Position numbers and translations under genes: made by a program
NCBI RefSeq assembly: GCF_040183065.1
Contig: NC_091131.1
Location: forward strand, 16,866,800-16,930,799
DNA from: Periplaneta americana
Taxonomy: Eukaryota; Arthropoda; Insecta; Blattodea; Blattidae
Length of the DNA: 64,000 bases
Direction of reading: 5' to 3'
Notes under the pieces: generated by a model
The model's input: only the letters and a program-made list of their open reading frames with translations
Database searches by the model: none
What the model was told of the DNA's origin: nothing
Part shown: positions 25,079-50,716 of the stretch, piece by piece
Layout: every line of letters starts with the position of its first letter
Numbering within the stretch: position 1 is the first letter of the stretch

Positions 25079-25080
25079 AC

Positions 25081-25198
25081 AAGTAAGGCAAGGGGGAATA
25101 CAGGACGGCATCCCGTTCCTTGGTAGCGCCATTTTTTCCGGAGTTATTGGCAATATCGATTAACGGAATGTGTACTTTTATTCCCCCTTGACTTACTT
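25081..25198. repeat. Satellite inversion point, left arm (hairpin)
   Basis: AAGTAAGGCAAGGGGGAATA at 25,081-25,100 is matched by its near-perfect reverse complement TATTCCCCCTTGACTTACTT at 25,179-25,198, with about 78 bp between. This is where the '+' array flips to a '-' copy. The mirror site in the other arm is 50,599-50,716. Confidence 0.85.
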
Positions 25199-25575
25199 CG
25201 GATACAATAACATCAAAATGGCAATCTCAAACACAAACTGATTATCAAGAAAAAATTCTTCTATTGCTACAACATTCTCGCCTCCATATCTCCGCCTTAT
25301 GTGTATATAGAACAAAGTTGATAAATGCGGCGAATAGGTCTCGACGAACTGTATGAGTAGTGTAAAATGCAACCTTGTGTCCCCTGGCATATGGACGGTA
25401 GGGGCCGTGAAATTTAAAAAACGTGGTAATTTTTGCCTTCCAAAACAGAATTTTCTCTACACAAGTAGAACGTAGGTGCTCACAGACCCGTCCTTTTCAC
25501 TGTAGCAACAACGCATGTTTACTAATATTTACGAATAAAATCCAGCAAATCCCTAGCACTTTTTTGTAGTGTTGT
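25179..25575 (-). repeat. Diverged satellite copy, inverted, outer end of the left low-copy block
   Basis: Reads as the reverse complement of a monomer from TATTCCCCCTTGACTTACTT to AATCCAGCAAATCC...GCACTTTTTT, but is much more diverged than any array monomer. It has ACTTACTTCGGATACA where array copies have ACTTACTTGTTACACG, and GCATATGGACGGTAG where they have GCGTTTGGACAGGAG. Both differences are shared with the other inner copy at 29,828-30,236, so the two form their own subfamily. Homology stops near 25,575 and low-copy DNA begins. Confidence 0.85.
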
Positions 25576-25789
25576 GATCTTGAGCTGGCCATTGTTTCTT
25601 CCCTTGCAGTGAGGGAATTCTTCTTGACAATGATTGTTGTTTGCCATTAGGTGCAATTGTCAGTAAAAAAAAGTGGCCGCACTCGTGAACAGCGAATATT
25701 TTCTAAGTCCACTACGGGTCACAGCGATGTTGCACGATGCGTGTGCTTTTGGATGCAGTTCCAGAACAATGAAATCATTCTATTATATG

Positions 25790-25851
25790 TGTCTCTTAGA
25801 CCAGTGATAGAGTGCTCGCTTAGTGATTCGAAGGTTGTGAGTTCGGGCCCA
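25790..25851 (+). pseudogene. tRNA-like sequence (decayed tRNA or SINE head), left arm
   Basis: TAGACCAGTGATAGAGTGC resembles the internal A-box/D-arm of a tRNA. GAAGGTTGTGAGTTCGGGCC, about 20 bp further on, resembles the B-box/T-arm. Spacing fits a tRNA without a long variable arm. The T-stem does not pair (GTGAG against CCATT) and the anticodon stem is imperfect, so this is not a working tRNA gene. A Pol III-type promoter relic at the head of a SINE-like repeat is the best reading. A 51-bp tandem repeat follows 20 bp downstream. Confidence 0.4.
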
Positions 25852-25868
25852 TTTAATGTTTTCATTTT

Positions 25869-26218
25869 ATTTTTTAATCGTTCTTTAGCAATATTAATAC
25901 GACATTATTGAAATTATCATTTTTATTCTGTTATCATTCTTTATCGATATGAATAATATTCAAGTTATATATATTTTATCGCTCTTTTAGCGATATAATA
26001 TTCAAGTTATAATTTGTTATATTTTGGTATCGTTCTTTAGCGACATGAATAATATTCAAATTACCATTTGTATTCTGTTATCGTTCGTTTGCAATATATC
26101 TAATATTCAAATTATCATTGTATTCTATTATCGTTCGTTAACGATATAAATAATATTCAAATTATCATTTGTATTCTGTTATCGTTCGTTACCGATATAA
26201 ATAATATTGAAATTATCT
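25869..26218 (+). repeat. 51-bp tandem repeat with an internal hairpin, left arm
   Basis: About seven copies begin near 25,878, 25,936, 25,978, 26,030, 26,081, 26,131 and 26,182. The best conserved have period 50-51 bp. Each has a short dyad of the type ATCGTTCGTTAACGAT followed by AATAATATTCAAATTATC. The last three units are the most regular. The block directly follows the tRNA-like head and has a mirror copy in the other arm. Confidence 0.75.
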
Positions 26219-26606
26219 TCGAAATTTTGGCAATTAGTGTTGTTTTTGCCTCATCTCGAATCTCCTTTGTTGTAGTTTTTAAAAAATATATAATTTGTAC
26301 TTTGTGTACCTTATACCATCTGCAGCGTCTCTTTCTTCTATTTCACATTTTCTGACACTTATTATCATTGCGACGGACAAAATGTAGATTTGAAATTGGG
26401 CAAAAGACTTCATTTAGTTACCAAGTCCAAGTTCAAAATTGTGGTATGTTCGAAACTGAGACTATTATTTTGAATTGAATGTAATTATTTAATTCCATGA
26501 TTATAGTTATATATTCTAATGTGGGATGTGTTTGGAATGTTTGATTTTCCAGTTATGAATATTTTTCCTTTGGCATTCTTCATTTGCTTTGTCTTGTTCA
26601 TGTATT

Positions 26607-26816
26607 TCATGATGTCTTTGTTGCATTGTTGATTTGAAACATAGAGATATTAGAGCCATAACATTGCTTATGTTTGCAGGCTGATTCCTCGGGTAGATGG
26701 TAGTATGTCGCTGGATTGCCTGACAGTGATGTTTCGTTCATGTCGCATACTGGTGTGATCAAATTTGCAGCACTGTCCTCGTGACATGCTACAGCTGGAC
26801 ACGTAACAAGTTGCAA
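26607..26816 (-). other. Uncharacterised 69-codon ORF, left arm; coding status doubtful
   Basis: An ATG-to-stop reading frame of 69 codons starting MQLVTCPAVACHED, with five cysteines and no family I recognise. The mirror copy in the right arm (48,928-49,137) keeps the same length with one amino-acid change (Tyr to Cys). Because the arms are highly similar throughout, this does not by itself show selection. No promoter, splice signals or partner gene are evident. Confidence 0.12.
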
Positions 26817-27674
26817 TGTGAGGAGAAGGCAAGAGTGAGTGGTTTAGTTAAATAATACAAGTTAATTTCATGAAGTGTATTAAACATCTTAATTGCAGTA
26901 TAGATACGAGTATGTGTAATATGTATAAAGGAATAGAGGAAAAATAATTCTTAACAATAAGAGGAGACATACTGTAAACTGCATAAAAGCTAATTTCATT
27001 GTCAATGATTTTCAGTATCCATCAAGTTACAAGTGTTAATAGGAGGCTCACAGTATAAAATGTTGACGTCATTAGGATTAGTATTTCGTAAAGAGGTGTT
27101 GAAGGAATAGATGATGGAGATGCAATGTGTTATGAATAACCTTCAAAATAGTGACTATATCATTACGTGAGTGGTGTTATAAGTATATTAAGGAATGTAG
27201 AAACAGGATATATTTAAGTCTATTTTAACAAAAGAATGTTTGTATAATGTTGATATTTTTTTAAATGTACAGTAGATTTCAATATAAATGTTTGACTATG
27301 CCTGTATACTTTGTATTTTATGACAATAAAGTTTAAGCGGAAGGAATATACTTTTGATTGTATCTTTCAACATTCTAAGTGTATTATGCATTTTACAGAG
27401 ACCCCAGAAATGACCAGGACCAAGAGGAGAACCGTCAGCCGCTAGGTGCCCTGGGTATTGCATCCACTTGCACCGAACAGTGAGGTCTGATACCGCTAGT
27501 CATGGCCCCACTCGCCGTCCTGGACCCACCGCAGGATGTGCCTACGAGTTTTGTCCCATGCAAATAGTGTGCGACGCCAGCAGATGGAAAAGAGAGCAGC
27601 AAATCGCTGAAGCCCTTTTGAATATGTATGATGAGTAAAGATAGCGAAAAGCCGATAGTGGATTGTAATCCAGT

Positions 27675-27872
27675 GTAATACCACAATCTAGTGATTATGT
27701 ATAGTCATGAAGCTTGAGTTGTGAGGGTGCTAGGAACAGTAGACTGTGCTGGTAGTATTTCCCATTGTCTGTAATGAGGCGATATTAGCGATCCTAGTGG
27801 CTAGCAACTATCTATGGACGCATATTTACTACGTATTGAGCTTCGTGACTATATACTAGACTGTGGTAATAC
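27675..27872. repeat. Short inverted repeat (about 40-bp arms), left arm
   Basis: GTAATACCACAATCTAGTG and the following bases to 27,715 are matched, as an imperfect reverse complement, by 27,836-27,872 (TTGAGCTTCGTGACTATA...GTGGTAATAC). About 120 bp lie between. Only one arm of this hairpin exists in the right half of the palindrome (about 48,025-48,067). The structure could be a small MITE-like element or a local fold-back duplication. Confidence 0.7.
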
Positions 27873-28357
27873 TAAATGTCATTGATTTTCTTATATCTAT
27901 ATACATATATACATAATTTGAATTGGTAATGGAAATTATGGGAAAATGGCTGAACGGATTTTAATAAATGACCCCTCATTTTGAAGCTTGGAACTCAAAG
28001 TTTTTCAGAAAAATAGTAGTTTTCAGTGAAATGTCACATTTTCAGCATAATTTTCCTATTTTCCAAAATCCATCTGTCGTCAGTTTTGAGAACTAGCTAA
28101 TTGCTTTTCAGAATAAAACATAACACACACTACAGTAAACAATATTACACGAAGACCATGATCTGCAAGAATGCTGACATATTTAGAGCTCAATTAAATT
28201 GGTTATTAAAAACTTAACTTACTAAAAATAATTTACAGGTTCGATTCTGTGGTGTGTAATTTTCTGGGTACAGTTGTGTATTGGATATTAAAAACTACAA
28301 AACTTGAGGTGGTTTGATGACATTATTACCATTAGAAATGAAATATTATTATAGCTA
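27722..28357. other. 636-bp segment present only in the left arm
   Basis: Comparing arms, the left reads GAAGCTTGAGTTG then 636 bp then ATGCCATGATG. The right arm, read in reverse complement near 48,014-48,034, joins these flanks directly. No target-site duplication is visible at the joint, so a deletion from the right arm is as likely as an insertion in the left. The segment includes ATGGCTGAACGGATTTTAAT near 27,945, a kind of sequence I associate with dispersed repeats in arthropod genomes, though this is from memory only. Confidence 0.75.
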
Positions 28358-29198
28358 ATGCCATGATGTAACTTTTTCATTAATTATACATATTAATGCT
28401 ATATTAATGATATGAAAGTGAAATGTTTTGGGGTTATATAAGTAGATGTAGAGAATATCTTAAATTAGACCTTCATTTCTATAATTTACTTAGTGGCGGC
28501 TATTAAGTAATATATATAACTACAAAACTTACTTAAGATAATATTCTTATAAAAAATCAAATATTTTTATACTTAATAATCAAGTGGGGTTGGGTCTTTT
28601 TCATATACTTAATGGCGGTGTGATGTAGATATTTATATGCGTCATTCTCTTCAATATTGACTCTAGAGAGCGTAAAAAATTACAGTGCCTAAGGAAAGAG
28701 CAAAAGATATTACTTAGTGATAAAATAAGAGATCTACAAAATGTTATAGTTTCCCGATAATTTCTGCAAGATCTCTTAGCAAGATAAAATGATTTTGCCC
28801 TCTACATTTCAAGCTCTACATGCAGCAGCCATACCAATTGTTCGAAAGCATAGCAAACCTGACTTTTTTTAACTTTCACTTAGAATCCACAATAACATGA
28901 AATAGCTATTTCTTTACCCCCACATAAAAACCCACTGATCATCCTGACATTGTTACTTGCATTTTCGAGTTGAAACTCAAAAACTGAAAGTGTATAGATT
29001 AAAAAAAAAGTATTTGGATAAAAAAAAAACATTCAGAAGGAGTATGTTTCATTATTATGGAAGCAAATAACTTTCAAAATGGCTGGTATTCTTCATTGGA
29101 AATAAATCTGGAAAATTTTTATTCGAACGTCTAATGAACTTAGTATGCAGCATTTGCTGCACAAGCCACTAGTGTCTCCATAATATCATTTTTTTTTT

Positions 29199-29762: not shown

Positions 29763-29827
29763 ATAGAGCATAATTGGGGAATAATCAGGTATGATGAATA
29801 CAGTAATCTCCCGTCGAATTTCCATCT

Positions 29828-30236
29828 GCCTTGTCCGAAGTAAGTTAATGAGGAATAGGTACAACACCGCATCCGCTCCTCGATAAGGCCATTATTTCAG
29901 GAGATTAGAGACTGAAATATTTTATGTGGGGGAAAAAAATAAGTCTACAAAAAAGTCCAACGGATTTTCTCGATTTTATAGGTGAATATTAGCAAACATG
30001 TGGGGATGCTACAGTAAAAGAGCGTGTCTCTGAGCCCCTTTGTTCTCCTTGTGCAGAGAAAAATCTGCTTTTGAAAGTCAAAATGACCATTTTTTTTTTA
30101 ATTTTGCCGGCCTCTACCGTCCATATGCCTGGAGGCAGAGGGTTGTCCCTCACATTACAGATAGACTTCGAGGGGCTCTATTCGCCGCACTTATCAGCTT
30201 TGTTCTCACTGCACTTACCGGAGAGTTTATAAATTA
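29828..30236 (+). repeat. Diverged satellite copy, inner end of the left low-copy block
   Basis: A '+'-orientation satellite relative, running from GTCCGAAGTAAGTTAATGAG through GGCCATTATTTCAGGAG, AACGGATTTTCTCGATTTTA and CTACCGTCCATATGCC to CGCCGCACTTATCAGC. It shares TCCGAAGTAAG and CCGTCCATATGCC with the inverted copy at 25,179-25,575, against GTAACAAGTAAG and CTGTCCAAACGC in array monomers. With that copy it brackets the low-copy DNA as inverted repeats of about 400 bp. Confidence 0.85.
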
Positions 30237-30585
30237 AATTAAACTAATTTAAAATATAGTGAAATAAATCCATAAGAATTAAATTGAAATAAATTAAATT
30301 ATAATAAAATATATGAAATAACATACAATAAACTAAAATAGAATAACAAAACTGCAAATAAATTGGAGTAAATTAAATTAAAATAAATGACAACAAAATA
30401 AATAAAATTAATTAAGTTAAATTAATTTAACTTAATTGAAAATAATTAAATTAAATCGAAACAAAATAAATTAAATAAATAGAATAAAATGAATTAAAAT
30501 GAAATAGATTAAAATAAATGAAAATTAAACAAAAAAATTAAATAAAATAATTTAATATAAATAAAATTGAATTGAAATAAATGAA
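30237..30585. repeat. AT-rich simple-sequence spacer, left arm
   Basis: Nearly pure A/T with degenerate AAATAAATTAAA-type units, A-rich on the + strand. It has no coding or structural signal. The mirror copy at 45,873-46,146 is T-rich and somewhat shorter. Confidence 0.85.
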
Positions 30586-32577
30586 AGGATTACCTGTGTA
30601 ATCCACACACAGAATTGGATTACCTATGTAATCCACACAGAATTGGAATACCTATGTAATTCCTATGGAATCCACACAAAGAATTGGATTACCTATATAA
30701 TCTACACACACACAGAATTGTATTACATGTGCAATCCAGAGACAGAACTGAATTACATATGTATTCCACACACACAGAATTGGATTACATTTGCATTGCA
30801 CACACAGAATTGGATAAGCTATGTAATCCACACACAGAATTGGATTACCTATGTAATCCACATACAGAATTGGATTACCATTCTAATCCAGACAGAATTG
30901 TATTAGATACAGTATGTAATCCACACAAAGAATTGGATTACATATGCAATCCACACACAGAATTGAATTACCTATGTAATCCACACACAGAATTGGATTA
31001 CCAATGTAATCGACACAGAATAGAAATACCTATGGAATCCACACAAAGAATTGGCTTAGCTATATAATCTACACATAGAATTAGACTATTTATGTAATCC
31101 ACACACACAGAATTGTATTACATGTGCAATCCAGAGAGAAAATTGAATTACATATGTAATCCACACGTACAGCATTGAATTACCTATGTAGTCCACACAG
31201 AATTTGATTATCTATGTAATCCATACACAGAATAGGATTACCAATGTAATCCACACACAGAATTGGATTACCTGTGTAATCCACACACATAGAATTGGAT
31301 TACCTACGTAATCCACACACAGAATTGGATTACCCATGTAATCCACACACAGAATTGGATTACATATGTATTCCACACACAATTGGATTGCCTATGCAAT
31401 GCACACACAGAATTGGATTATCTATGTAATCCACACACAGAATTGGATTACCTATGTAATCCACACACAGAATTGGATTACATATGCAGTGCACACACAG
31501 AATTGGATTACCTTTGTAATCCACACACAGAATTGAATTACATATGTAATCCACACATACAGCATTGAATTACGTATGCAATGCACATACAGAATTGCAT
31601 TACCTATGTAATCCACACAAAACTGGATTACCTATGTAATCCACACACAGAATTGGATTACCTGTGTAATCCACACACACACAGAATTGGATTACCTATG
31701 TAATCCACACATACAGCATTGAATTACATATGCAATGCACACACAGAATTGGATTATCTATGATACCCACACGCAGAATAATATTACCAATGTAATCCAC
31801 ACACAGAATTGGATTACCTGTGTAATCCATACACATAATTGGATTACCTATGTAATCCACGCACAGACTTGGATTACCTATGTAATCCATACACAGAATT
31901 GGATTACATATGTATTCCACGCACAGAATTGGATTACCTATGTAATCCACACACAGAATTGGATTACCTATGTAATCCACACATACAGCATTGAATTACA
32001 TATGCAATGCACACACAGAATTGGATTATATATGTAATCCACACACAGAATAGGACTACCAATGTAATCAACACACAGAATTGGATTACCTGTGTAATCC
32101 ACACACACAGAATTGGATTACGTATGTAATCCACACACAGAATTGGATTACCTATGTAATCCATACACAATTGGATTACATATGTATTCCACGCACAGAA
32201 TTGGATTACCTATGTAATCCAACACAGAATTGGATTACCTATGTAATCCGCACACAGAATTGGATTACATATGTAATCCAAACGCAGAATTGGATTACAT
32301 ATGTAATCCACACACAGAATTTGATTACATATGCAATGCACACACAGAATTAAATTACCTATGTAATCCACACACAATCGGATTGCCTATGTAATCCACA
32401 TACAGAATTGAATTACCTATGTAATCAAGACACAGAATAGGATTACTTATGTAATCCACACACAGAATTGGATTACCTATGTAATCCACGCACAGAATTG
32501 CATTACATATGCAATATATTCACAGAATTGGATTACCTATGTAATCAACACACAGAATTGGATTACATATGTAATCC
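30586..32577 (+). repeat. 30-bp minisatellite with palindromic core, left arm (about 66 units)
   Basis: The unit is close to CACACAGAATT followed by GGATTACCTATGTAATCC. Period is 30 bp and exact over long runs, for example 31,441-31,530. Each unit has a dyad GGATTAC-NNNN-GTAATCC, and the variant GGATTACATATGTAATCC is a perfect 18-bp palindrome. Several units carry the variant CATACAGCATTGAATTAC (near 31,170, 31,560, 31,707 and 31,985). Small indels of CA or ACAC change the spacing. Stop-free stretches of 60-150 codons here come from repeat composition. Confidence 0.95.
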
Positions 32578-32578
32578 A

Positions 32579-35500
32579 AAACCCGGATTTCGAGTCCCAA
32601 ACTCCGTGTTTCGCCTCCCAAACACCGGGTTCCGGGTACAAAACTCCAGGTTCCTTTCCCAAACTCTGGGTTCCAGTCCCAAACTCCGCGTTCCCATTCC
32701 AAATTCCGGGTCGAAAACTCCAGGTTCCTGTCCCAAACTCCGGGTTACCGTCCCACACTACGGTTTCCGGTCCCAAACTCCGGCTTCCGGTCCCAAATTC
32801 AGGTCTCCGGATCCAAACCTCCGTGTTACGGGTCACAAATTCTGGGTTCCGGGTTACAAACTCCGGGTTCCGGTTCCCAATCTCCGGGTTCCGATTCCCA
32901 AACTCTGGGTTCCGGTCTAAAACACCGGGTTCCGGTTCCCAAATTCCGGGTTACGGTGTCAAACTCCGGGTTTCGGAGCCCAAACTCCGGGCCACAAATT
33001 CGGGGTACCAAACTCCAGGATCCGGTTCCCAAACTCCGGGTATCGATTCCCAAACTCCATGTTCCCGGCCACATTCTCCGGGTTCCGGGTGTCTAACTCC
33101 GAGTTCCGGTCCCAAACACCGGGTTCCGCTACCCAAACTCCGGGTTCCAAGTCCAAAACTCCGGATTCCGGTCACAAACTCCGGGTTCCGGTAACCAAAC
33201 TCCTGGATGCAGGTCCCAAACTCCGGGTTCCGATTCCAAACTCCAGGTCCAAACCCTAGGTTCCTGTACAAAACTCCGGGTTCCGGGACCCAAACTCTGG
33301 GTTCCGGTTCCGAACTCCTAGTTCCGGTACCAAACTCCAGTTTCCGGTCCGAAGCTCCGGGTTCCGGTCCGAAACATCGGGTTCCGGTTACCAACTTCCG
33401 TGTCCCGGGTCCCAAACTCTGGGTTCTCGTCCAGAACTCCGGGTTCCGGTAACACACTCCGGTTTCCGGTCACAAACTCGGGTTCCGGTCCCAAATTCCG
33501 GGTTACGGTTCCAAACCTCCGGGTTCCGGGTTACAATCTCCGGGTTCCGGTTCCCAAACTCCTTGTTCCGTTTCCCAAACTCCTTGTTCCGGTTCCCAAA
33601 CTCCAAGTTCCGGGTCCCAAACTCTGGGTTCCTGGATCCCAAACACCGAGTTCCGGTCCCAAAATCCGGGTTCAGGTTTCAAACTCCGGCTTCCGGTACC
33701 CAAACTCCGCATTCCAGGTCCCAATCTCCGGGTTCCGGTTACAAACTCCGGGTCCAAACCCTAGTTTCCTTTACCAAACACTGGGTTCCGGGTGCCAAAC
33801 TCCTAGTTCCGCTACCAAACTCCGGGTTCCGTTCCGAAACTCCGGGTTCCGTTCCGAAACTCCGGGTTCCGGGTCCCAACTTCCGGCTCCCGGTTCCCAA
33901 AATTCTGGGTTCTCATCCCGAACTCCGGGTTCCCGTCCCACACTCCGGGTTCCGGTCCAAAACTCCGGGTTGCGGTCCCAAATTCCGGGCTACGGTTCGA
34001 AACCTCAAGGTTCCGGGTCACAAATTCTGGGTTACGGGATATGAACTCTGGGTTCCGGTTCCCAAACTACTTGTTCAGTTTCCAAAACCCCGGGTTACGG
34101 TCTCAAACTCCGGGTTCCTAAACCAAACATTGGGTTCCAGTCCCAAAATCCTAGTACAGCTAACAAATTCCGGGTTCCGGTCCGAAACTCCGGATTCCGC
34201 TTCCCAACTTCCGTGACCCAAACTCTGGGTTCTCGGCCCGAACTCCGGGTTCCGGTCCCACACTCCGATTTCCTGTCTCAAACTCCGGGTTCCGATCCAA
34301 ATTCCGGGCTACGGTTCCAATCCTCAGGGTTGCGGGTTACAAAATCCGGGTTCCGGTACCAAAACTCCTTGTTCCGGTTCCCAAACTCCGGGTTCCGGTC
34401 TCAAACTCCGGGTTCCGCTACACAAATTCCGGGTTCCAGGACACAAACTCTGGGTTCCAGTTCTAAAATCCGGGTTCCGGACTCAAACTCCGGGTTCCGC
34501 TACCCAAAGCTCAGGGTTCCGGTCCCAAACTCCGGGTTCAGGTTTCAAATTCCGGGTTCCGGTACCAAAACTCCGGATTCAAGGTCCCAATCTCCGGGTT
34601 CCTTTACCAAACTCCGGGTTCCGGGTCCCAAAATGTGAGTTCCGGTCCCAAACTCGTAGTTCCGCTACCATACTCCCGGTTCCGGTCCGAAACTCCGGGT
34701 TCCGGGTCCCAAATTCCGACTCCCTGGTCCCAAAATTCTGGGTTCTCGTCCCGAACTCCGGGTTCCGGTCCCACACTCCGGTTTCCGGTCCAAAAGTCCG
34801 GGTTCCGGTCCCAAACCTCAGGGTTCCGGGTCACAAATTCTGGGTTCCGGGATACGAACTCCGGGTTCCGTCTCCCAAATTATTTGTTCCGGTTCCCAAA
34901 CTCCGGGCTCCGGAACCAAACTTTGGGTTCCACTAACAAAATCCTAGTACAGCTAACAAACTCCGGGTTCCGGTCCGAAACTCCGAGTTCCGCTTCCGAA
35001 CTTCCGGGTCCTGAGTCCCAAACTCCTGGTTCCGGGCCCACACTCCGATTTCCTGTCCCAAACTCCGGGTTCCGGTGCAAATTGCGGGCTACGGTTCCAA
35101 TCCTCAGGGTTCCGGGTCACAAAATCCGGGTTCAGATACCAAAACTCCCTGTTCCGGTCTCAAACTCCGGGTTCCGGTCCCAAACTTCGGGTTCTGGTCA
35201 CAAACTCCGGGTTCCGCTACACGAACTCCGGGTTCTAGGACACAAACTCTGGGTTCAAGTCCTAAAATCCGGGTTCCGGACTCAAACACCGGGTTTCGTT
35301 AACCAAACTCCGGGTTCCAGGTCCCAAACTCCGGGTCCAAACCCTAGGTTCCTGTACCAAACTCCGAGTTCCGGTCCCAAACTCATAGTTCCGATACCAA
35401 ACTCCGGGTTCCGGTCCGAAACTCCGGTTCCAAACCACCTGGTTACGGGTCACAAGTTCTGGGTTAAAATCTCCAGGTTCCGGTTCCCAAACTCCTTGTT

Positions 35501-37944: not shown

Positions 37945-39781
37945 TTCCAAATATAATCTCCAAAAAAAATTAAAAAACAAATTATCAAATAAAAATTTAA
38001 AAAAATTTAAAAAAATTTTCAAAAAAAGTTATCAAAATTTATAAAAACCAAATTAAAGATATTAAAAAACAATTAAAAAGCATTGTCAAAAAGAATTAAA
38101 AAATAATTTTCAAAAAAAGTAAAAATAAAATAATGAAATGTCCAAAAAAATAATTTTACAAAAGGAAATTTTGAAGAACTAATTTTTTGAAAAAAAAAAT
38201 CTTCAAGAAAATTTTTCAAAAAAAGTCGAAAAAATTTTCAAAGCATCGAAACAATTTTTTTTTATTAAAAAAAATGTCCAAAAATAAATAAAAACAATTT
38301 TCAAAAAAATTAAAAAAAAAATTTGGAGAAATTAAAAAAAAATTGAAGATATTTTTAAAAAAAATTTGAAATAATTTTCAAAAATTTTTTCTAAATTCCA
38401 AAAAAATTATGAAAAAATTTTTTTCATTAAATTTTTGAAAACAAATAAAAAAAAATTAACAATATAGTATCGAATAAAATATTTCTCCAATAAAAGGATT
38501 GAAAAAAAATTCTCCAAAATAATTTTTGAAAAAATTTTTGAAAAAAAAAGAACGAAAAAATAATTTTTCAAAAAAAAAATTTGAAATAATAATTATTCAC
38601 AAAAAAAAAATAAAAAAATTTTATTAACAAAAAAATATTTTTAAAAATTTTGAAAAAAATTATTTACAAAAAAATTTAAAAAAAATTTCAGAAAAAAATT
38701 TGAAATTTTTAATTTTTTTTAATTTATATTTTCAAAAAAATTATGAAATTATATTTAAAAAAAATTTAAAAATTTTTTCACGGTTTTTATTTCCAGAAAG
38801 AAATTGAAATAAAAATTCTCCAAAAAAAATTTTGTAAAAATAATTTTTTGAAAAACATTTTTTGATACAGGATTTTTTGAAAATCTTTTTTTTAATTTTT
38901 TTAAAATAATTTTTTAGGAATTTAAAAAAAAGTTTCCAAAAATATTTTAAAATTAAAAAAAAAAAATTAAAAAAAAAATTTTTTTTCAAAAATCTTTTTT
39001 TCAGAATATTTTTGGCGAAATTTTACTTCAATTTCCATTTGGAAAAAATTTTTTTGAAAATATTTTTAAAATTTTTTTGAAAATAACCAAAAAATTATTT
39101 TGAAAATATTTTTTTAATTTTTTGAAAAATTTCCTTTTTCATTTTTGTGGAATTAAAAAATAGTTCTTGAAAAACATTTCCAAAAAAATAAAAAAAAAAA
39201 CAAAAAAAATTTTCAAAATTTTTTAAATTTTTTTTGTTTGAAAATTTTTTTTGTATTCTTTTGTAAACAATTTTTTTTCAAAATATTTCGAAAAAAATTT
39301 CTTTGATAAAAAAAATTTTTCTAATTATTTTAAATAAATTTAAAAATTTTTTTTTTTGAAAAATTATTTTTTCAAAATATTTTTTTTTCAATAATTTTTT
39401 GGAATTTAAAAAATTTCTTTTTTTGAAAAATTACTTGTTGAAATATTTTTTCAAATTTTTTTTGAAATTACTTTTTCAAAAATTTTTTTGAAAAAAAAAA
39501 AATTTTGATATTTAAAAAAATTTTTTTGACAATTTTTTTTAATATTTGACATAATTTTTTTTTAATTATTTCTTCAAAATTTTTTTGAAAAATTATTTTT
39601 TGGGCATTCCATTTTTTAATTCCTTAATACTGTTATTGAAATTTTTAAAAATCTTTTTAACTTCGTTTTTATATCTTTCGATAATTTTTTTGAACATTTT
39701 TTCTTGACTTTTTTAAAAAATTTTTTGTTAGTTTTTGTTTAATAATTTATATATTTTTTAATTTTCTTGTAGAATATGTTG
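37945..39781. repeat. A/T-rich centre of the palindrome
   Basis: About 1.84 kb of almost pure A/T with no gene. The + strand is A-rich from 37,945 to about 38,700, mixed to about 39,000, then T-rich to 39,781, as expected of a decayed inverted repeat. The outer edges still match: GATATAATTCCAA at about 37,938 and its reverse complement TTGGAATTATATC near 39,779. The true symmetry point lies near 38,860 but cannot be fixed to the base, because the sequence is too simple. Confidence 0.85.
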
Positions 39782-42700
39782 GAATTATATCTGGAACCCG
39801 GAGTTTGGTATACTGGAACCGGAGGTTGGGATGAGGATCCCGGAGTTTGGGAACCGGAACCCGGAGTTTGGGACCTGGAACCCGGAGTTTGGGGACCGGA
39901 GCCCGGAGTTAGAGACCCGTAACCCGAAGAATGTAGCTGGGAACATGGATTTTAATAATCGGTACCCGGAGTTTGGGAACCGGAGCCAGGAGTTCGGTAC
40001 CGGGAATTTTTGGCCCGGTGTTTGAGACCCGAACCCGGAGTTTTAGACCAGATCCCGGAACCCGGAGTTTTATACCGGACCCCGGAGTTAGGGAACCGGA
40101 TCACGGAGTTTGGGAACCGGAACCCGGAGTTTGTAACAGAACCCAGAATTTCTGACCCGGAACCCGGAGGTTTGGAACCGTAGACCGGAATTTGGGACCG
40201 GAACCCGGAGTTTGGGACCGGAAACCGGAGTGTGGAACCGGAACCCGGAGTTTTGGGACGATAACCCAGTGTTTGGGACCCGGGTCCCGGAAGATGGGAA
40301 CCGGAACCCATAGTTTCGGAACGGAACCCGGAGTTTCGGACCGGAATCCGGAGTTTAGTACCGGAACTAGGAGTATAGGACCGGAACCCGGATTTTAGGA
40401 CCAGAACCCGGAGTTTGGATAGTGGAACCCGGACTTTGGGACCGGAACCCGGAGTTTGGGACCCGGTACCCGGAGTTTGAGACCGGAACCCTGAGTTTGG
40501 GAACCGGAACAAGAAGTTTGGGAATCGGAACTCGAAGTATGTAACCCGGAACCCAGAATTTGTGACCTTGATCCCGGAGGTTTAGAACTGTACTCCTGAA
40601 TTCGAGACCGGAACCCGGAGTTTGGGACCGGAAACCGGAGTGTGGGACCGGAACCTGGAGTTTGGGACGAGAACCCGGAGTTTGGTACCCGGGACCCGGA
40701 AGTTTGGAACCGGAACCCGGAGTTTCGGAACGGAACCGGGAGTTTGGTACCGGAACTAATAGTTTGGTACCGGTACCGAGAGTTTGGGACCCGGAACCCG
40801 GAGTTTGGTAAAGGAACATAGGGTTTGGATCAGGAGTTTGGAACCGGAACCCGGGAAATTGGGATCTGGAACCCGGAGTTTGGGTACCGGAACCTGGAGT
40901 TTGGGACCGGAACCCGGATTTTGGGACCGGAACCCGAATTTTGGGACCGGACCCCGGAGCTTGGTTCCTGGAACCCGGAGTTTGGTTCCGGGAACCCGGA
41001 GTTTGTGTAGCAGAAACCGGAGTTTGGGAACCGGAACCCGGTGTTTGAGACCGGAACCATGAGTTCGGGACCAGAACCCAGAATTTGGAACCCGGGATCT
41101 GGAACCCGAAGATTCGGACCGGAACCCGGAGTTTGGTGCCGGAACTATGACTTTGGGACCGCAACCCGGAGTTTGGTACAGGAACATAGTTTGGACCCGG
41201 AGTTTGGAACCGGAACCCGGAGTTTGGGAAAGGTAACCCGGAGTTTGGATATGGAAACCCGGAGTTTGAGACCGGAACCCGGATGTTTGGACCGTAACCC
41301 TGAGTTTTGGTCCTGGAACCCGGAGTTTGTGTAGCTGAACCCGGAGTTTGTGACCGAAACCCGGAGTTTGGGACCCGAAACCCGGAGTTCGAGAACCGGA
41401 ACAAGGAGTTTGGGAAGCGGAACCCGGAGTTTGTAAGCCGTAACCCAGAATTTGTGATCCGCAACTCTAAGGTTTGGAACCGTAGCCCGGAATTAGGGGA
41501 ACCGGAATCGGAGTTTGGGACCGGAACCTAGAGTTCGGGACGAGAACCCAGAGTTTGGGACCCAGGACCAGGAAGTTGGGGACCGTCACCCGGAGTTTCG
41601 GACCGGAACACCGAGTTTCGGACCGGCACGCCGAGTTTCGGACCGGCACGCCGAGTTTCGAACCGGAACCCGGAGTTTGGTACCGGAACTAGGAGTTTGG
41701 GACCGGAACCCAGAGTTTTGGACCCGGAACCCGAAGTTTAGTAAAGGAACCTAAGGTTTGGATCCGAAGTTTGGAACCGGAACCCGGAGATTTGGACATG
41801 GAATCCGGAGTTTGGTACCGAAACCCGGAGTTTGAGACCGGAACCCGGGTTTTAAGGCCGGAACCCGGAGTTTAGATCCTGGTACCCGGAGTTTGTGTAG
41901 CGGGACCCGGAGAATGTGACCGGAACCCGGAGTTGGGACCCGGAAGCCGGAGTTTGAGACCGGAACACGGAGTTTGGGAGGAACAAGGAGTTTGGGAACC
42001 GGAACCCGGAGTTTGGGACCCGGAAACCAGTATTTGTGACCCGGAACCCTGAGGTTTGGAACCGTAGCCCAGAATTTGGGACCGGAACCCGGAGTTTGGG
42101 AACGGAACCCGGAGGTAGGGAGCAGAAACCGGAGTTTGGGTCCGGAACCCGAGTTCTGGGCGAGAACCCAGAGTTTGGATCCCGGGACACGGAAGTTGGG
42201 ACCCGGAACCCGGAGTTTCGGATCGGGACCCGGAGTTTCAGACCGGAACCCGGAGTTTGGTACTGGAACTAGGAGTTTGGGACCGGAACCAAGTGCTTGG
42301 AACACGGAACCCGGAGTTTGGTAAAGGAACCTAGGTTTTGGACCCAGAGCGTGGACCGGAACCCGGAGTTTGGGTCCTGGAAACCGGAGTTTGAGTAGCG
42401 GAACCCGGATTTCGGACCCGTAACCCGGAGTTTGGGACCCGGAACCCGGCGTCTGAGACCGGAACCTGGAGTTTGGAAACCGGAATTTGTGACCCGGAAC
42501 CCTGAGGTTTGGAATCGTGGCCCGGAATTTGGGACCGGTACCCGGAGTTTGGGACCGGAAGACGGAGTTTGGGGCAGAAACTGGATTTTGGGACCGGAAC
42601 CCGGGTTCGGGACGAGAACCCAGAGTTTGGGACCGGGGACCCGGAAGGTGGGAGCCGGAACCCGGAGTTTCGGATCGGGACCCGGAGTTTCAGAACGGAT

Positions 42701-43628
42701 CCCGGAGTTTGGTGCCGGAACTAGGAGTTTGGGACCGGAACCAAGAGTTTGGAACCCGGAACCCGGAGCTTGGTAAAGGAACCTAGATTTTGGACCAAGA
42801 GTTTGGAACCGGAACCCGGAGTTTGGGTCCTGGAAACCGGAGTTTGAGTAGCGGTACCCGGTGTTTGGACCCGGAACCCGGAGATTGGGACCCGGAACCC
42901 GGAGTTTGGGACCCGGAACCCGGCGTTTGAGACCGGAACCTGGAGTTTGGGAACCGGAACAAGTAGTTTGGGAACCGGAACCCGGAGTTTGTAACCCGGA
43001 ACCCAGAATTTGTGACCCGGAACCCGGAGGTTTGGAACCGTAGCCCGGAATTTGGGACCGGAACCCGGAGTTTGGGACCGGAACCCGGAGTTTGGTTAGA
43101 GGAACCCGGATTTTGGGACCGTAACCCGGAGTTTGGGACCAGAACTCGGAGTTAGATACCCGGAACCCAGAGAATGTGGCCGGGAATATGGAGTTTGGGA
43201 AGCAGTACCCGGAGTTTGGAAACCGGAATTTGTGGTCCGGAGTTTGGGCACCGAAACCATGAGTTTGCGACCGGAACCCGGAGTTTTATATTGTAACCCG
43301 GAATTTGGGAACCGGAACCCGGTGTTATAGACCGGAAACCGGAGTTTGGGAACCGGAACCATGAGTTTGGGAACCGCAACCCTGAGTTTGTAACACGGAA
43401 CCCAGAATTTGGTACCCGTAAACCGGAGTTTGGGACCGGAAACCGGAGTGTGGGACGGTAACCCGGAGTTTGGGACAGGAACCTGGAGTTTTCGACCCGG
43501 AATTTGGAATGGGAACGCGGAATTTGGGACTGGAACCCAGAGTTTGGGAAAAGAACCTGGAGTTTTGGACCCCGAACCCGGTGTTTGGGAAGCGGAACAC
43601 GGAGTTTGGGACTCTAAATCAGGATTTT
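39782..43628 (-). repeat. 20-bp CCGG-rich minisatellite, right arm (about 190 units)
   Basis: Reverse complement of the left array, reading GGACCGGAACCCGGAGTTTG. It is about 1.5 kb shorter than its partner, so unit number has changed since the arms formed. Stop-free stretches, including 365 codons on the minus strand at 40,367-41,464, have the same compositional cause as in the left array. The outer end (43,565-43,628) repeats in mirror form the variant units found at 32,580-32,640. Confidence 0.95.
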
Positions 43629-45872
43629 GGATTACATACGTAATCCAATTCTGTGTGTTGATTACATAGGTAATCCAATTCTGTGAATATATTGCATATA
43701 TAATGCAATTCTGTGTGTGGATTACATAGGTAATCCAATTCTGTGTGTGGATTACATAAGTAATCCTATTGTGTCTGTATTACATAGGTAATTCAATTCT
43801 GTATGTGGATTATATACGCAACCCCATTGTGTGGATTACATAGGTAATTTTATTATGTGTGTGCATTGCATATGTAATCAAATTCTGTATGTGGATTACA
43901 TATGTAATCCAATTCTGTGTGTGGATTACATAGGTAATCCAATTCTGTGTGTGGATTACATAGGTAATCAAATTCTGTGCGTGGAATACATATGTAATCC
44001 AATTCTGTGTGTGGATTACATAGGTAATCCAATTCTGTGTGTGGATTACATAGGTAATCCAATTGTGTGTGTGGAATACTTATGTAATCCAATTCTATGT
44101 GTGGATTACATGGGTAATACAATCTGTGTGTGGATTACACAGGTAATCCAATTCTGTGTGTGTGGATTACACAGGTAATCCAATTCTGTGTGTGGATTAC
44201 ATTCGTAATCCTATTCTGTGTGTGGATTACATAGATAATCAAATTCTGTGTGGACTACATAGGTAATTCAATGCTGTATGTGTGGATCACATATGTAATT
44301 CAATTTCTCTCTGGATTGCACATGTAATACAATTCTGTGTGTTGGATTACATAAATAGTCTAATTCTATGTGTAGATTATATAGCTAATCCAATTCTTTG
44401 TCAGGATTCCATAGGTATTTCTATTCTGTGTCGATTACATTGGTAATCCAATTCCGTGTGTGGATTACATAGGTAATTCAATTTTGTGTGTGGAATGCAT
44501 ATGTAATCCAATTCTGTGTGTGGATTACAAACTATATCTGATACAATTCTGTGTGGATTAGAATGGTAACCCAATTCTGTATGTGGATTACATAGATTAT
44601 CCAATTCTGTATGTGGATTACATAGGTAATCCAATTCTGTGCGTGGAATACATATGTAATCCAATTCTGTGTATGGATTACATAGGTAATCCAATTCTGT
44701 GCGTGGATTACATAGGTAATCCAATTCTGTGTGTATGGATTACACAGGTAATCCAATTCTGTGTGTGGTTTACATTGGTAATCCCATTCTGCGTGTGGGT
44801 ATCATAGATAATCCAATTCTGTGTGTGCATTGCATATGTAATTCAATGCTGTATGTGTGGATTACATAGGTAATCCAATTCTGTGTGTGGATTACACATG
44901 TAATCCAATTCTGTGTGTGGATTACATAGGTAATCCAGTTCTGTGTGGATTACATAGGTAATCCAATTCTGTATGTGCATTGCATATGTAATTCAATGCT
45001 GTATGTGTGGATTACATATGTAATTCAATTCTATGTGTGGATTACATAGGTAATCCAATTCTGTGTGTGCACTGCATATGTAATCCAATTCTGTGTGTGG
45101 ATTACATAGGTAATCCAATTGTGTGTGGATTACATAGATAATCCAATTCTGTGTGTGCACTGCATATGTAATTTAATGCTGTATGTGTGGATTTCACAGG
45201 TAATCCAATTCTGTGTGTGGATTACATAGGTAATCCAATTGTGTGTGTGGAATACATATGTAATCCAATTCAGTGTGTGGATTACATGGGTAATCCAATT
45301 CTGTGTGTGGATTACATAGGTAATCCAATTCTGTGTGTGTGTGGATTACACAGGTAATCGAATTCTGTGTGTGGATTACATTGGCAATTCTATTCTGTGT
45401 GTGGATTACATAGATAATCAAACTCTGTGTGGACTACATAGGTAATTCAATGCTGTATGTGTGGATTACATATGTAATTCAATTTTCTCTCTGGATTGCA
45501 CATGTAATACAATTCTGTGTGTGTGGATTACATAAATAGTCTAATTCTATGTGTAGATTATATAGCTAATCCAATTCTTTGTGTGGATTCCATAGGTATT
45601 TCTATTCTGTGTCGATTATATAGGTAATCCAATTCTGTGTGTGGATTACATAGGTAATTCAATTTTGTGTGTGGATTGCATATGTAATCCAATTCTGTGT
45701 GTGGATTACATACTATATCTGATACAATTCTGTGTGGATTAGAATGGTGATCCAATTCTGTATGTGGATTACATAGGTTATCCAATTCTGTGTGTGCATT
45801 GCATAGGTATTCCAATTCTGTGTGGATTACATAGGTAATCCAATTCTGTGTGTGGATTACACAGGTAATCCT
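43629..45872 (-). repeat. 30-bp minisatellite with palindromic core, right arm (about 74 units)
   Basis: Reads as GGATTACATAGGTAATCC followed by AATTCTGTGTGT, the reverse complement of the left array. It is about 250 bp longer than its partner. Variant landmarks such as AATGCTGTATGTGTGG recur (near 44,270, 44,845, 44,997 and 45,178). The inner boundary GGATTACACAGGTAATCCTT mirrors the left array start. Confidence 0.95.
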
Positions 45873-46146
45873 TTCATTTATTTCAATTCAATTTAATTTA
45901 TATTAAATTACTTTATTTTAATTTTTTTGTTTCATTTTCATTTATTTTAAACTATTTCATTTTAATTAAATGTATTTTAATTCATTTTATTCTATTTAAT
46001 TTAATTTACTCCAATTTATTTGCAGTTTTGTTATTCTATTTTAGTTTATTTTATGTTATTTCATATATTTTATTATAATTTAATTTATTTCAATTTAATT
46101 CTTATGGATTTATTTCACTTTATTTTAAATTATTTTAATTTAATTT
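45873..46146. repeat. AT-rich simple-sequence spacer, right arm
   Basis: T-rich on the + strand, mirror of 30,237-30,585 but about 75 bp shorter. Nothing else is visible in it. Confidence 0.85.
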
Positions 46147-46149
46147 ATA

Positions 46150-46551
46150 AACTCTCTGGTATGTGCAGTGAGAACAAAGCTGATAAGTGCGGCGAATAGA
46201 GCCCCTCGAACTCTATCTGTAATGTGAGGGATAACCCTCTGCCTCCAGGCATATGGACGGTAGAGGCCGGCAAAATTTAAAAAAAAAAAATGGTCATTTT
46301 GACTTTCAAAAGCAGATTTTGCTCTGCACAAGGAAAACAAAGGGGCTCAGAGACACGCTCTTTTACTGTAGCATCCCCACATGTTTGCTAATATTCACCT
46401 ATAAAATCGAGAAAATTCGTTGGACTTTTTTGTAGACTTATTTTTTTCCCCCCACATAAAATATTTCAGTCTCTAATCTCCTGAAATAATGGCCTTATCG
46501 AGGAGCGGATGCGGTGTTGTACCTATTCCGCATTAACTTACTTCGGACAAG
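46150..46551 (-). repeat. Diverged satellite copy, inner end of the right low-copy block
   Basis: Mirror of 29,828-30,236. It keeps the subfamily markers CATATGGACGGTAGAGGCCG and AACTTACTTCGGACAAG. Confidence 0.85.
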
Positions 46552-46618
46552 GCGGATGGAAATTCGACCGGAGATTACTATATTCATCATACCTGATTAT
46601 TCGACAATTATACTCTAT

Positions 46619-47184: not shown

Positions 47185-48927
47185 AAAAAAATGATATTAT
47201 GGAGACACTAGTGGCTTGTGCAGCAAATGCTGCATACTAAGTTCATTAGACGTTGAAATAAAAATTTTCCAGATTTGTTTTCAATGAAGAATACCAGCCA
47301 TTTTGAAAGTTATTTGCTTCCATAATAATGAAACATACTCCTTCTGAATGGTTTTTTTTATCCAAATACTTTTTTTTAATCTATACACTTTCAGTTTTTG
47401 AGTTTCAACTCGAAAATGCAAGTAACAATGTCAGGATGATCAGTGGGTTTTTATGTGGGGGTAAAGAAATAGCTATTTCATGTTATTGTGGATTTTAAGT
47501 GAAAGTTAAAAAAAGTCAGGTTTGCTATGCTTTCGAACAATTGGTATGGCTGCTGCATGTAGAGCTTGAAATGTAGAGGGCAAAATCATTTTATCTTGCT
47601 AAGAGATCTTGCAGAAATTATCGGGAAATTATAAAATTTTGTAGATCTCTTATTTTATCACTAAGTAATACCTTTTGCTCTTTCCTTAGGCACTGTAATT
47701 TTTACGCTCTCTAGAGTCAATACTGAAGAGAATGACGCATATAAATATCTACATCACACCGCCATTAAGTATATGAAAAAGATCCAACCCCACTTGATTA
47801 TTAAGTATAACAATATTTGATTTTTTATAAGAATATTATCTTAATTAAGATTTGTAGTTTTATATATATTATTTAATAGCCGCCACTAAGTAAATTATAG
47901 AAATGAAGGTCTAATTTAAGATATTCTCTACATCTACTTATGTAACCCCAAAACATTTCACTTTCATATCAATAATATAGCATTAATATGTATAATTAAT
48001 GAAAAAGTCACATCATGGCATCAACTCAAGCTTCGTGACTATACATAATCACTAGATTGTGGTATTACACTGGATTACAATCCACTATCGGCTTTTCGCT
48101 ATCTTTACTCATCATACATATTCAAAAGGGCTTCAGCGATTTGCTGCTCTCTGTTCCATCTGCTGGCGTCGCACACTATTTGCATGGGACAAAACTCGTA
48201 GGCACATCCTGCGGTGTGTCCAGGACGGCGAGTGGGGCCATGTCTAGCGGTGCCAGACCTCACTGTTCGGTGCAAGTGGATGCAGTACCAGGGGGCACCT
48301 AGCAGCTGACGGGTCTCCTCTTGGTCCTGGACATTTCTGGTGTCTCTGTAAAATGCATAATACTCTTAGAATGTTGAAAGATACAATCAAAAGTATATTC
48401 CATCCGCTTAAACTTTATTGTCATAAAATACAAAGTATACGGGCATAGTCAAACATTTATATTCAAATATACTGTACATTTTAAAAAATTTCAACATTAT
48501 ACAAACATTCTTTTGTTAAAATAGACTTAAATATATCCTGTTTCTACATTCCATAATAAACTTATAACACCACTCACGTAATGCTATAGTCACTATTTTG
48601 AAGGTTATTCATAACACATTGCATCTCCATCATCTATTCCTTCAACACCTCTTTACGAAATACTAATCCTAATGACGTCAACATTTTATACTGTGAGCCT
48701 CCTATTAACACTTGTAACGTGATGGATACTGAAAATCATTGACAATGAAATTAGCTTTTATGCAGTTTACAGTATGTCTCCTCTTATTGTTAAGAATTAT
48801 TTTTCCTCTATTCCTTTATACATATTACACATACTCGTATCTATACTGCAATTAAGATGTTTAATACACTTCATGAAATTAACTTGTATTATTTAACTAA
48901 ACCACTCACTCTTGCCTTCTACTCACA

Positions 48928-49137
48928 TTGCAACTTGTTACGTGTCCAGCTGTAGCATGTCACGAGGACAGTGCTGCAAATTTGATCACACCAGTCTGCG
49001 ACATGAACGAAACATCACTGTCAGGCAATCCAGCGACATGCTACCATCTACCCGAGGAATCAGCCTGCAAACATAAGCAATGTTATGGCTCTAATATCTC
49101 TATGTTTCAAATCAACAATGCAACAAAGACATCATGA
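48928..49137 (+). other. Uncharacterised 69-codon ORF, right arm; coding status doubtful
   Basis: Mirror of 26,607-26,816 with equal length and one amino-acid difference. No family recognised and no supporting gene structure. Confidence 0.12.
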
Positions 49138-49526
49138 AATACATGAACAAGACAAAGCAAATGAAGAATGCCAAAGGAAAAATATTCATAACTGGAAAAT
49201 CAAACATTCCAAACACATCCCACATTAGAATATATAACTATAATCATGGAATTAAATAATTACATTCAATTCAAAATAATAGTCTCAGTTTCGAACATAC
49301 CACAATTTTGAACTTGGACTTGGTAACTAAATGAAGTCTTTTGCCCAATTTCAAATCTACATTTTGTCCGTCGCAATGGTAATAAGTGTCAGAAAATGTG
49401 AAATAGAAGAAAGAGACGCTGCAGATGGAGTAAGGTACACAAAGTACAAATTATATATTTTTAAAAAACTACAAAAAAGGAGATTCGAGATGAGACAAAA
49501 ACAACACTAATTGCCAAAATTTTGAG

Positions 49527-49924
49527 GATAATTTGAATATTATTTATATCGGTAACGAACGATAACAGAATACAAATGATAATTTGAATATTATTTATAT
49601 CGTTAACGAACGATAATAGAATACAAATGATAATTTGAATATTATTTATATCGTTAACGAATGATAACAGAGTACAATGATAATTTGAATATTAGTTATA
49701 TTGCAAACGAACGATTACAGAATACAAATGGTAATTTGAATATTATTCATGTCGCTAAAGAACGATAACAAAATATAACAAATTATAACTTGAATATTAA
49801 TTATATCGCTAAAAGAACGATAAAATATATATAACTTGAATATTATTCATATCGATAAAGAATGTTAACAGAATAAAAATGATAATTTCAATAATGTCGT
49901 ATTTATATTGCTAAAGAACGATTA
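49527..49924 (-). repeat. 51-bp tandem repeat with an internal hairpin, right arm
   Basis: Mirror of 25,869-26,218, reading GATAATTTGAATATTATTTA and ATCGTTAACGAACGAT. About seven copies with the same order of regular and degenerate units. Confidence 0.75.
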
Positions 49925-49947
49925 AAAAATAAAATGAAAACATTAAA

Positions 49948-50009
49948 TGGGCCCGAACTCACAACCTTCGAATCACTAAGCGAGCACTCTATCACTGGTC
50001 TAAGAGACA
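49948..50009 (-). pseudogene. tRNA-like sequence (decayed tRNA or SINE head), right arm
   Basis: Mirror of 25,790-25,851. The A-box-like and B-box-like parts are unchanged between the arms. Confidence 0.4.
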
Positions 50010-50223
50010 CATATAATAGAATGATTTCATAGTTCTGGAACTGCATCCAAAAGCACACGCATCGTGCAACATCGCTGTGACTCGTAGTGGACTTAGAAAA
50101 TATTCTCTGTTCACGAGTGCGGCAAATTTTTTTATTGACAATTGCACCTAATGGCAAACAACAATCATTGTCAAGAAGAATTCCCTCACTACAAGGGAAG
50201 AAACAATGGCCAGCTCAAGATCA

Positions 50224-50618
50224 CAACACTACAAAAAAGTGCAAGCGATTTACTGGATTTTATTCGTAAATATTAGTAAACATGCGTTGTTGCTACAGTG
50301 AAAAGGACGGGTCTGTGAGCACCTACGTTCTACTTGTGTAGAGAAAATTCTGTGTTGGTAGGCAAAAATTACCACGTTTTTTAAATTTCACGGCCCCTAC
50401 CGTCCATATGCCAGGGGACACACAGTTGCATTTTACACTACTCATACAGTTCGTCGAGACCTATTCGCCGCATTTATCAACTTTGTTATATATACACATA
50501 TGGCGGAGATATGGAGCGAGAATGTTGTAGCAATAGAAGTATTTTTTCTTGATAATCAGTTTGTGTTTGAGATTGCCATTTTGATGTTATTGTATCCGAA
50601 GTAAGTCAAGGGGGAATA
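50224..50618 (+). repeat. Diverged satellite copy, outer end of the right low-copy block
   Basis: Mirror of 25,179-25,575, reading in '+' satellite orientation from GCAAGCGATTTACTGGATTT to CCGAAGTAAGTCAAGGGGGA. It keeps the subfamily markers TATCCGAAGTAAG and CCGTCCATATGCC. Confidence 0.85.
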
Positions 50619-50716
50619 AAAGTACACATTCCGTCAATCGATATTGCCAATAACTCCGGAAATAATGGCGCTACCGACGAACGGGATGCGGTCCTCTATT
50701 CCCCCTTGCCTTACTT
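50599..50716. repeat. Satellite inversion point, right arm (hairpin)
   Basis: AAGTAAGTCAAGGGGGAATA at 50,599-50,618 faces its near-perfect reverse complement TATTCCCCCTTGCCTTACTT at 50,697-50,716. Mirror of 25,081-25,198. Confidence 0.85.

What the first reader, a model, noticed from the sequence alone, without database searches (positions are those of the whole stretch)
25081..50716. Giant nested palindrome with diverged arms
A 25.6-kb mirror structure sits inside outward-facing satellite arrays, so the whole 64-kb window is palindromic in layout. The arms differ by scattered substitutions, a 636-bp indel and different minisatellite lengths, so this is a real old duplication or two loci, rather than one read folded back. 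Large palindromes with similar arms are known from sex chromosomes and amplified regions, where arm-to-arm gene conversion acts. Here the content is purely repeats.
Basis: partly seen in the sequence, partly recalled or inferred. Interest (0 to 1): 0.8.

Follow-up and report, generated by a model that had tools for sequence, protein, structure and literature searches.

The report
Satellite arrays mirrored around palindrome centres
In a cockroach genome, long stretches of a repeated DNA sequence reverse direction at an elaborate palindromic centre, and the same kind of centre recurs at other places in the genome, with its two halves usually kept alike at each place.

Summary
The palindrome is real and belongs to a dispersed family; it is not a one-off duplication. 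The window is C15:16.87-16.93 Mb of a 3.23-Gb genome whose COX1 is 99% identical to Blattinae cockroaches. A ~486-bp satellite (38,690 tag matches at up to 2 mismatches, 0 in control) runs outward on both sides of a nested inverted module: junction, degenerate inverted satellite, block X, ~30-bp and ~20-bp minisatellites, AT-rich core, mirror. A junction tag marks 37 places on 9 contigs; 22 of 37 form 11 pairs 15-36 kb apart. C8 and C3 loci show the same order. In X, arms within three loci are 98.6-100% alike, versus 89-91% between loci. In 8 of 9 loci the two arm ends are sisters. So arms are homogenised locally, most likely by gene conversion (inferred); the inner parts escape it at the two loci tested. 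Closest known: Tribolium macro-dyad satellites and the satellite-seeding foldback transposon Tetris. Function is undemonstrated; a centromere role is disfavoured by several loci per contig.

The parts
1..25146 (+). Left array of the ~486-bp satellite (main periods 441-487 bp; the repeat finder also reports 193- and 339-bp periods), on the + strand
25129..25158 (+). Inversion-junction tag (near-palindromic), left, 1 mismatch to the tag
   Evidence: coordinates converted
25136..25568 (-). Degenerate inverted satellite copy just inside the junction (65-73% to the array monomer)
25652..26217 (.). Repeat also found at C6:115.34 Mb (89%), containing the 51-bp tandem array 25906-26217
26295..27332 (+). 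Block X, left: non-tandem, recurs as inverted pairs elsewhere
27722..28357 (+). 636 bp present in the left arm only (deletion in the right arm)
27892..29173 (.). Dispersed interspersed repeat inside the arm (listed genome copies mostly 89-92% identical)
29838..30208 (+). Second degenerate satellite copy (72-73%)
30229..30586 (.). AT-rich TAAAT-type run, left
30587..32578 (+). 30-bp minisatellite, left
32579..37938 (+). 20-bp GC-rich degenerate minisatellite, left; in-register similarity to the right copy only in about the outer 200-450 bp
37945..39790 (.). AT-rich core, A-rich left half and T-rich right half; self-complementarity 0.865 vs control mean 0.798, maximum 0.816
39791..43612 (-). 20-bp minisatellite, right
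43628..45871 (-). 30-bp minisatellite, right
45872..46148 (.). AT-rich TTTAA-type run, right
46169..46543 (-). Degenerate satellite copy, right counterpart of 29838-30208
48412..49449 (-). Block X, right (98.6% to the left copy)
49527..49937 (.). 51-bp tandem array, right (longer than on the left)
50323..50618 (+). Degenerate inverted satellite copy, right
50639..50668 (-). Inversion-junction tag, right, 0 mismatches
50651..64000 (-). Right satellite array, opposite orientation; continues about 81 kb beyond the window to an insertion

Best explanation
The window holds the inversion centre of a satellite macro-dyad: a ~486-bp satellite array of several hundred kb that reverses orientation at a nested palindrome (junction, inverted degenerate satellite, X, ~30-bp array, ~20-bp array, AT core, mirror). 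Shown: the module recurs on other contigs; arms within a locus resemble each other far more than arms of other loci; and at the two loci tested the in-register similarity stops inside the 20-bp arrays. Inferred: after an ancestral palindromic module spread together with satellite, ectopic recombination between the inverted arms of each locus (gene conversion, possibly with inversion of the centre) keeps the outer arms alike, while the degenerate minisatellites and AT core form an old spacer that escapes conversion. No host function is needed to explain it; a role in heterochromatin structure is possible but undemonstrated.
For: Recurrence: the junction tag gives 50 matches (0 in the reversed control), collapsing to 37 junctions on 9 contigs, with 11 pairs 15-36 kb apart (pairing limit 70 kb); in 10 of 11 pairs the best strand is + on the left and - on the right, in one (C12) it is ambiguous. 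X alone shows 11 inverted pairs, the window's included, among 40 scored of 648 candidates. The order of parts is the same at C8:7.44 Mb, read in full, and at C3:192.8 Mb, where flanks and core were read and the minisatellites placed by search. Satellite faces outward on both sides in 7 of 8 other loci whose two ends were fetched. Homogenisation: in X, arms within a locus are 0.986, 1.000 and 0.999 alike, between loci 0.891-0.913; in 8 of 9 loci the two arm ends are sister branches. Spacer: at C8 the 21-bp arrays are in register and near-identical for 1.2 kb, then the signal stops, with a fainter in-register match again beside the core.
Against: Recent re-formation of each palindrome would also make arms alike. 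15 of 37 junctions have no partner within 70 kb at up to 2 mismatches. At C1:30.6 Mb the fetched right end is truncated or replaced and is not sister to the left. Within the C15 satellite, the best non-local match of a monomer lies on its own side in 198 of 209 left and 164 of 180 right monomers, so satellite beyond the arms is not being exchanged freely now. A stretch whose listed matches are all on one strand also occurs (C1:204.11-204.15 Mb, capped list). Old symmetry of the centre is uneven: the C15 core is above its control but only weakly so by windows, the inner C15 arrays show none, and the C10 core is not above control (0.794 vs mean 0.783, maximum 0.823).
Confidence: 0.72

Rival explanations
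1. Each locus descends from a foldback DNA transposon whose terminal inverted repeats contained tandem repeats that then expanded into satellite arrays (the Tetris model), with X, minisatellites and AT core as inner and middle domains. This is about origin and could hold together with arm conversion.
For: Dispersed copies with inverted arms rich in tandem repeats, and satellite related to arm sequence (degenerate satellite copies inside the arms). Passages of PMC4079207 describe such an element seeding satellite arrays.
Against: No outer terminal repeat or target-site duplication was found at the one outer edge read: the right edge of the C15 array decays through about 83% then 72% satellite pieces into other repeats. 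DNA just outside gave 40 scored of 19,424 candidates, copies of another dispersed repeat, none adjoining a family locus (a weak test). No transposase match in the three arm ORFs tested.
Confidence: 0.3
2. Palindromes are re-formed recently and independently at each locus (hairpin or template-switch inverted duplication of one arm).
For: Arms almost identical within loci; inverted duplication is an established mutation type (recalled).
Against: Re-formation should make the centre as alike as the arms; instead similarity falls towards the centre at C15 and C8. The same ordered module at three loci would have to be rebuilt each time.
Confidence: 0.13
3. A centromere-like element of fission-yeast layout: AT-rich core flanked by inverted and outer repeats.
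For: Layout resembles it (fission-yeast layout is recalled); AT cores also at C8, C10 and C3.
Against: Several paired loci on one contig (four on C9). 29 of 33 loci on the 7 contigs of known length lie in the outer quarters and 0 of 33 in the middle 30%; one further locus found later, C5:138.46 Mb, lies at 0.70 of its contig. A CENP-B-box-like pattern (recalled) had 0 matches in the window, but 0.79 were expected by chance, so that says little.
Confidence: 0.04
4. Assembly artefact: one arm assembled twice by folding.
For: Such errors happen in repeats (general knowledge).
Against: Arms differ by substitutions, a 636-bp deletion and array lengths; the same module appears at independent loci with locus-specific variants on both arms.
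Confidence: 0.03

Closest known systems
Macro-dyad symmetries of Tribolium satellites (PMC13081366; abstract and passages seen)
   Same: Satellite arrays reverse orientation at conserved inversion sites, giving palindromes of many kilobases at many loci.
   Different: There the inversion site is a diverged subunit or short segment and the longest dyad annotated was 75 kb. Here the centre is an ordered module of at least six parts, with junction pairs 15-36 kb apart (X pairs up to about 65 kb) and arrays of roughly 95 kb or more per side at C15 and C8. Their arrays are putatively pericentromeric; here loci lie mostly towards contig ends.
Tetris foldback transposon and TIR-220 satellite of Drosophila virilis (PMC4079207; abstract and passages seen)
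   Same: Inverted arms with internal tandem repeats related to satellite arrays; no coding capacity found; dispersed.
   Different: Tetris inverted repeats are up to 1.7 kb, with target-site duplications in complete copies; here no outer ends or duplications were found, and satellite lies outside the nested module.
Ape sex-chromosome palindromes (PMC11168930; passages seen)
   Same: Long inverted arms kept alike, often with a spacer.
   Different: Those include gene-bearing palindromes and were screened to be under 80% repeats; these are embedded in satellite, without coding matches, and on several contigs.
Fission-yeast-type regional centromere (recalled, no call)
   Same: AT-rich core within inverted and outer repeats.
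   Different: Several per contig and no centromere evidence.

Membership tests
Satellite macro-dyad symmetry (Tribolium type) | Satellite array reverses orientation | tested here: met
Satellite macro-dyad symmetry (Tribolium type) | Inversion site conserved across loci | tested here: met
   37 junctions with the tag at up to 2 mismatches, 0 in the reversed control
Satellite macro-dyad symmetry (Tribolium type) | Pericentromeric location | tested here: inconclusive
   29 of 33 loci in outer quarters of 7 contigs, but centromeres are unmapped here
Satellite macro-dyad symmetry (Tribolium type) | Hairpin or cruciform formation in vivo | not testable with these tools
   needs experiment
Foldback transposon (Tetris type) | Long inverted arms with internal tandem repeats | tested here: met
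Foldback transposon (Tetris type) | Target-site duplication at outer ends | tested here: inconclusive
Foldback transposon (Tetris type) | Transposase in an autonomous relative | tested here: inconclusive
   no Pfam match at cut-off for 3 arm ORFs (one sub-threshold match, E 0.064); no genome-wide transposase search done
Gene-converting palindrome | Arms of one locus closer to each other than to paralogous arms | tested here: met
   8 of 9 loci; X at 3 of 3 loci
Gene-converting palindrome | Arms under 80% repeats (screen of PMC11168930) | tested here: inconclusive
   no repeat annotation was run; my sum of the listed parts is about 81% of 25129-37938, more if satellite is counted
Regional centromere | One active site per chromosome | tested here: not met
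   four paired loci on C9, two on C4; activity itself not measured
Regional centromere | CENP-A occupancy | not testable with these tools
   needs experiment

The most novel reading that the evidence does not exclude
The nested centre is a cis-acting seed: its AT core and flanking degenerate minisatellites act as a breakage or replication site from which satellite is amplified outwards in both directions, so that arrays are born as dyads and spread with their centre.
Probability: 0.12. Interest if true: 0.85.

Novelty: new variant of a known kind. Interest (0 to 1): 0.55.

Why it matters
How satellite arrays arise, spread and stay symmetric is an open question. Here each locus carries its own internal control: two arms plus inner parts that are not homogenised. 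Many loci in one genome would let conversion, re-formation and transposon origin be told apart. If the conversion reading holds, palindrome arm homogenisation is not limited to gene-bearing sex-chromosome palindromes.

Tried and rejected
My early note called the loci mobile foldback elements. I moved that to a rival because satellite of the local subfamily lies outside both ends and reverses there, and no outer end was found. Coding or RNA function of X: no Rfam match at gathering score in 24900-50800, no Pfam match at cut-off for 3 arm ORFs, and conservation of X across three loci without a sharp block (0.60-0.96 per 50 columns), so dropped; a faint splice- and AATAAA-like look is by eye only. 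Distal position as a clue to function: the dispersed repeat inside the window's arm is also distal (13 of 13 on the same contigs) while COX1 fragments are not (14 of 30), so the bias is not specific to palindromes. Core self-complementarity at C10 was not above control. Paper searches. One search ('cockroach', 'satellite DNA', 'Blattella', 'satellitome', at least 3 of 4) listed 8 papers, none by title on a cockroach satellitome; subscription journals are mostly not held. Galileo papers were seen in the listing only. PMC13427858 was looked at by a find only: it cites the Tribolium paper.

Counts: the tree used 20 rows (9 loci with both ends, 2 with one end); C1:30.6 Mb right is not sister and is the miss in 8 of 9. 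The four C9 loci group together, but the two C8 loci do not clearly do so. The 33 loci were compiled by hand, only on contigs of known length, and include loci seen only by a 20- or 30-bp array; C5:138.46 Mb came later and is not in it. The lists are capped (18, 40, 39 and 40 candidates scored). The monomer test used the 389 monomers with matches of at least 425 bp only.
Full report
Host and place. The window is G000:C15:16866800-16930799 of a 3.23-Gb genome in 91 contigs. Its COX1 is 99% identical to Blattinae cockroaches.

Anatomy. Outside to inside on the left: ~486-bp satellite on + (1-25146), a near-palindromic junction (25129-25158), a degenerate inverted satellite copy (25136-25568), a repeat also found on C6 (25652-26217), block X (26295-27332), a dispersed repeat (27892-29173), a second degenerate satellite copy (29838-30208), an AT-rich run, the 30-bp array (30587-32578), the 20-bp array (32579-37938) and the AT core (37945-39790). 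The right side mirrors this, except that 636 bp including the left end of the dispersed repeat is deleted there. On the left, satellite is unbroken to the edge of what was read (C15:16.767 Mb) and spot samples show it at 16.50 Mb but not at 16.35 Mb. On the right it runs to 17.012 Mb, is interrupted by a hAT-like insertion, and decays by 17.021 Mb.

The module recurs. X finds 11 inverted pairs, the window's included, among 40 scored of 648 first-look candidates; most are 12-35 kb apart, C10:4.11/4.18 Mb about 65 kb. Arm ends pair likewise, as do several 20-bp arrays and 30-bp arrays. C8:7.434-7.460 Mb, read in full, has satellite, inverted satellite copy, X, 28-bp array, 21-bp array, AT core and mirror; arms are 97.7% alike over 9.36 kb, and spot samples still show satellite about 100 kb to the left and 105 kb to the right. 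At C3:192.795-192.817 Mb, flanks and core were read and the minisatellites placed by search; the order is the same, with arms 98.6% alike over 7.47 kb. The junction tag gives 50 matches (control 0), collapsing to 37 junctions on 9 contigs; 22 of 37 form 11 pairs 15-36 kb apart. Ten of 11 pairs read + left and - right; the C12 pair is ambiguous because the tag nearly matches its own reverse complement. Fifteen junctions are unpaired at this stringency; C1:30.6 Mb, for one, has a second arm seen. A satellite tag matches 17,532 times on + and 21,158 on - at up to 2 mismatches (control 0). At ~480 bp each that is about 18-19 Mb (my arithmetic), so about one tagged junction per thousand tagged satellite copies.

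Arms evolve together at each locus. In X the two arms are 0.986 (C15), 1.000 (C8) and 0.999 (C3) alike, while loci are 0.891-0.913 alike. In a tree of arm ends, 8 of 9 loci have their two ends as sisters with at least 99/98 support; in the ninth (C1:30.6 Mb) the fetched right end is truncated or replaced. The four C9 loci group together, which suggests spread along a chromosome; the two C8 loci do not clearly group. If one ancestral palindrome had simply dispersed, arms within a locus would be as different as loci are. So these loci have been homogenised, or re-formed, since dispersal.

Conversion or re-formation. At C8 the 21-bp arrays match in register almost perfectly for 1.2 kb and then stop; beside the core a fainter in-register match reappears (200-bp window score 138 vs 85 for paralogous units; outer 100 bp of the core 72 vs 23). 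At C15 the in-register match is lost within about the first 200-450 bp of the 20-bp arrays and does not reappear in the inner array. Alike outside and unlike inside fits conversion on an old palindrome better than fresh duplication, but fast-mutating minisatellites could contribute. The satellite beyond the arms is not exchanged freely at C15: best non-local matches are on the same side in 198 of 209 and 164 of 180 monomers.

What it is not. A centromere is unlikely: several loci per contig, and none of 33 loci in the middle 30% of 7 contigs. The distal bias is shared by one dispersed repeat, 13 of 13, but not by COX1 fragments, 14 of 30. A mobile element is not excluded; the Tetris precedent is close, but at the one outer edge read no end or target-site duplication was found.

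Verdict. A new variant of satellite macro-dyad symmetry, distinguished by an elaborate, recurrent inversion centre and by locus-wise concerted evolution of its arms. Function remains undemonstrated.

Noticed in passing
C15:17011717-17013912 (L027:918-3113): Insertion in the right satellite array with an open reading frame of 530 aa (Pfam DUF659) and, by eye, an 8-bp target duplication; hAT-like (that label is recalled).
   Followed up: partly
G000:C74 and C75: A second COX1 without in-frame stops under the standard code, in ~8.3-kb tandem units, unlike the insect mitochondrial copies; perhaps a symbiont or contaminant.
   Followed up: no
G000:C8:14.65-14.68 Mb and C1:196.81-196.86 Mb: 30-bp arrays in direct orientation, four copies spaced ~10 kb (C8) and ~15 kb (C1), so this minisatellite also occurs outside palindromes.
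   Followed up: no
G000:C49:96573-105437 and C3:202686822-202695785: Near-duplicate palindromic 30-bp arrays on a small contig and a chromosome-size contig; perhaps the other haplotype.
   Followed up: no
G000:C5:197585557-197587224: A 30-bp array ends exactly at the contig end (contig length 197587224), perhaps an assembly break.
   Followed up: no
G000:C1:65774-113237: Satellite array whose listed matches are all on one strand, within 0.12 Mb of the contig start.
   Followed up: no
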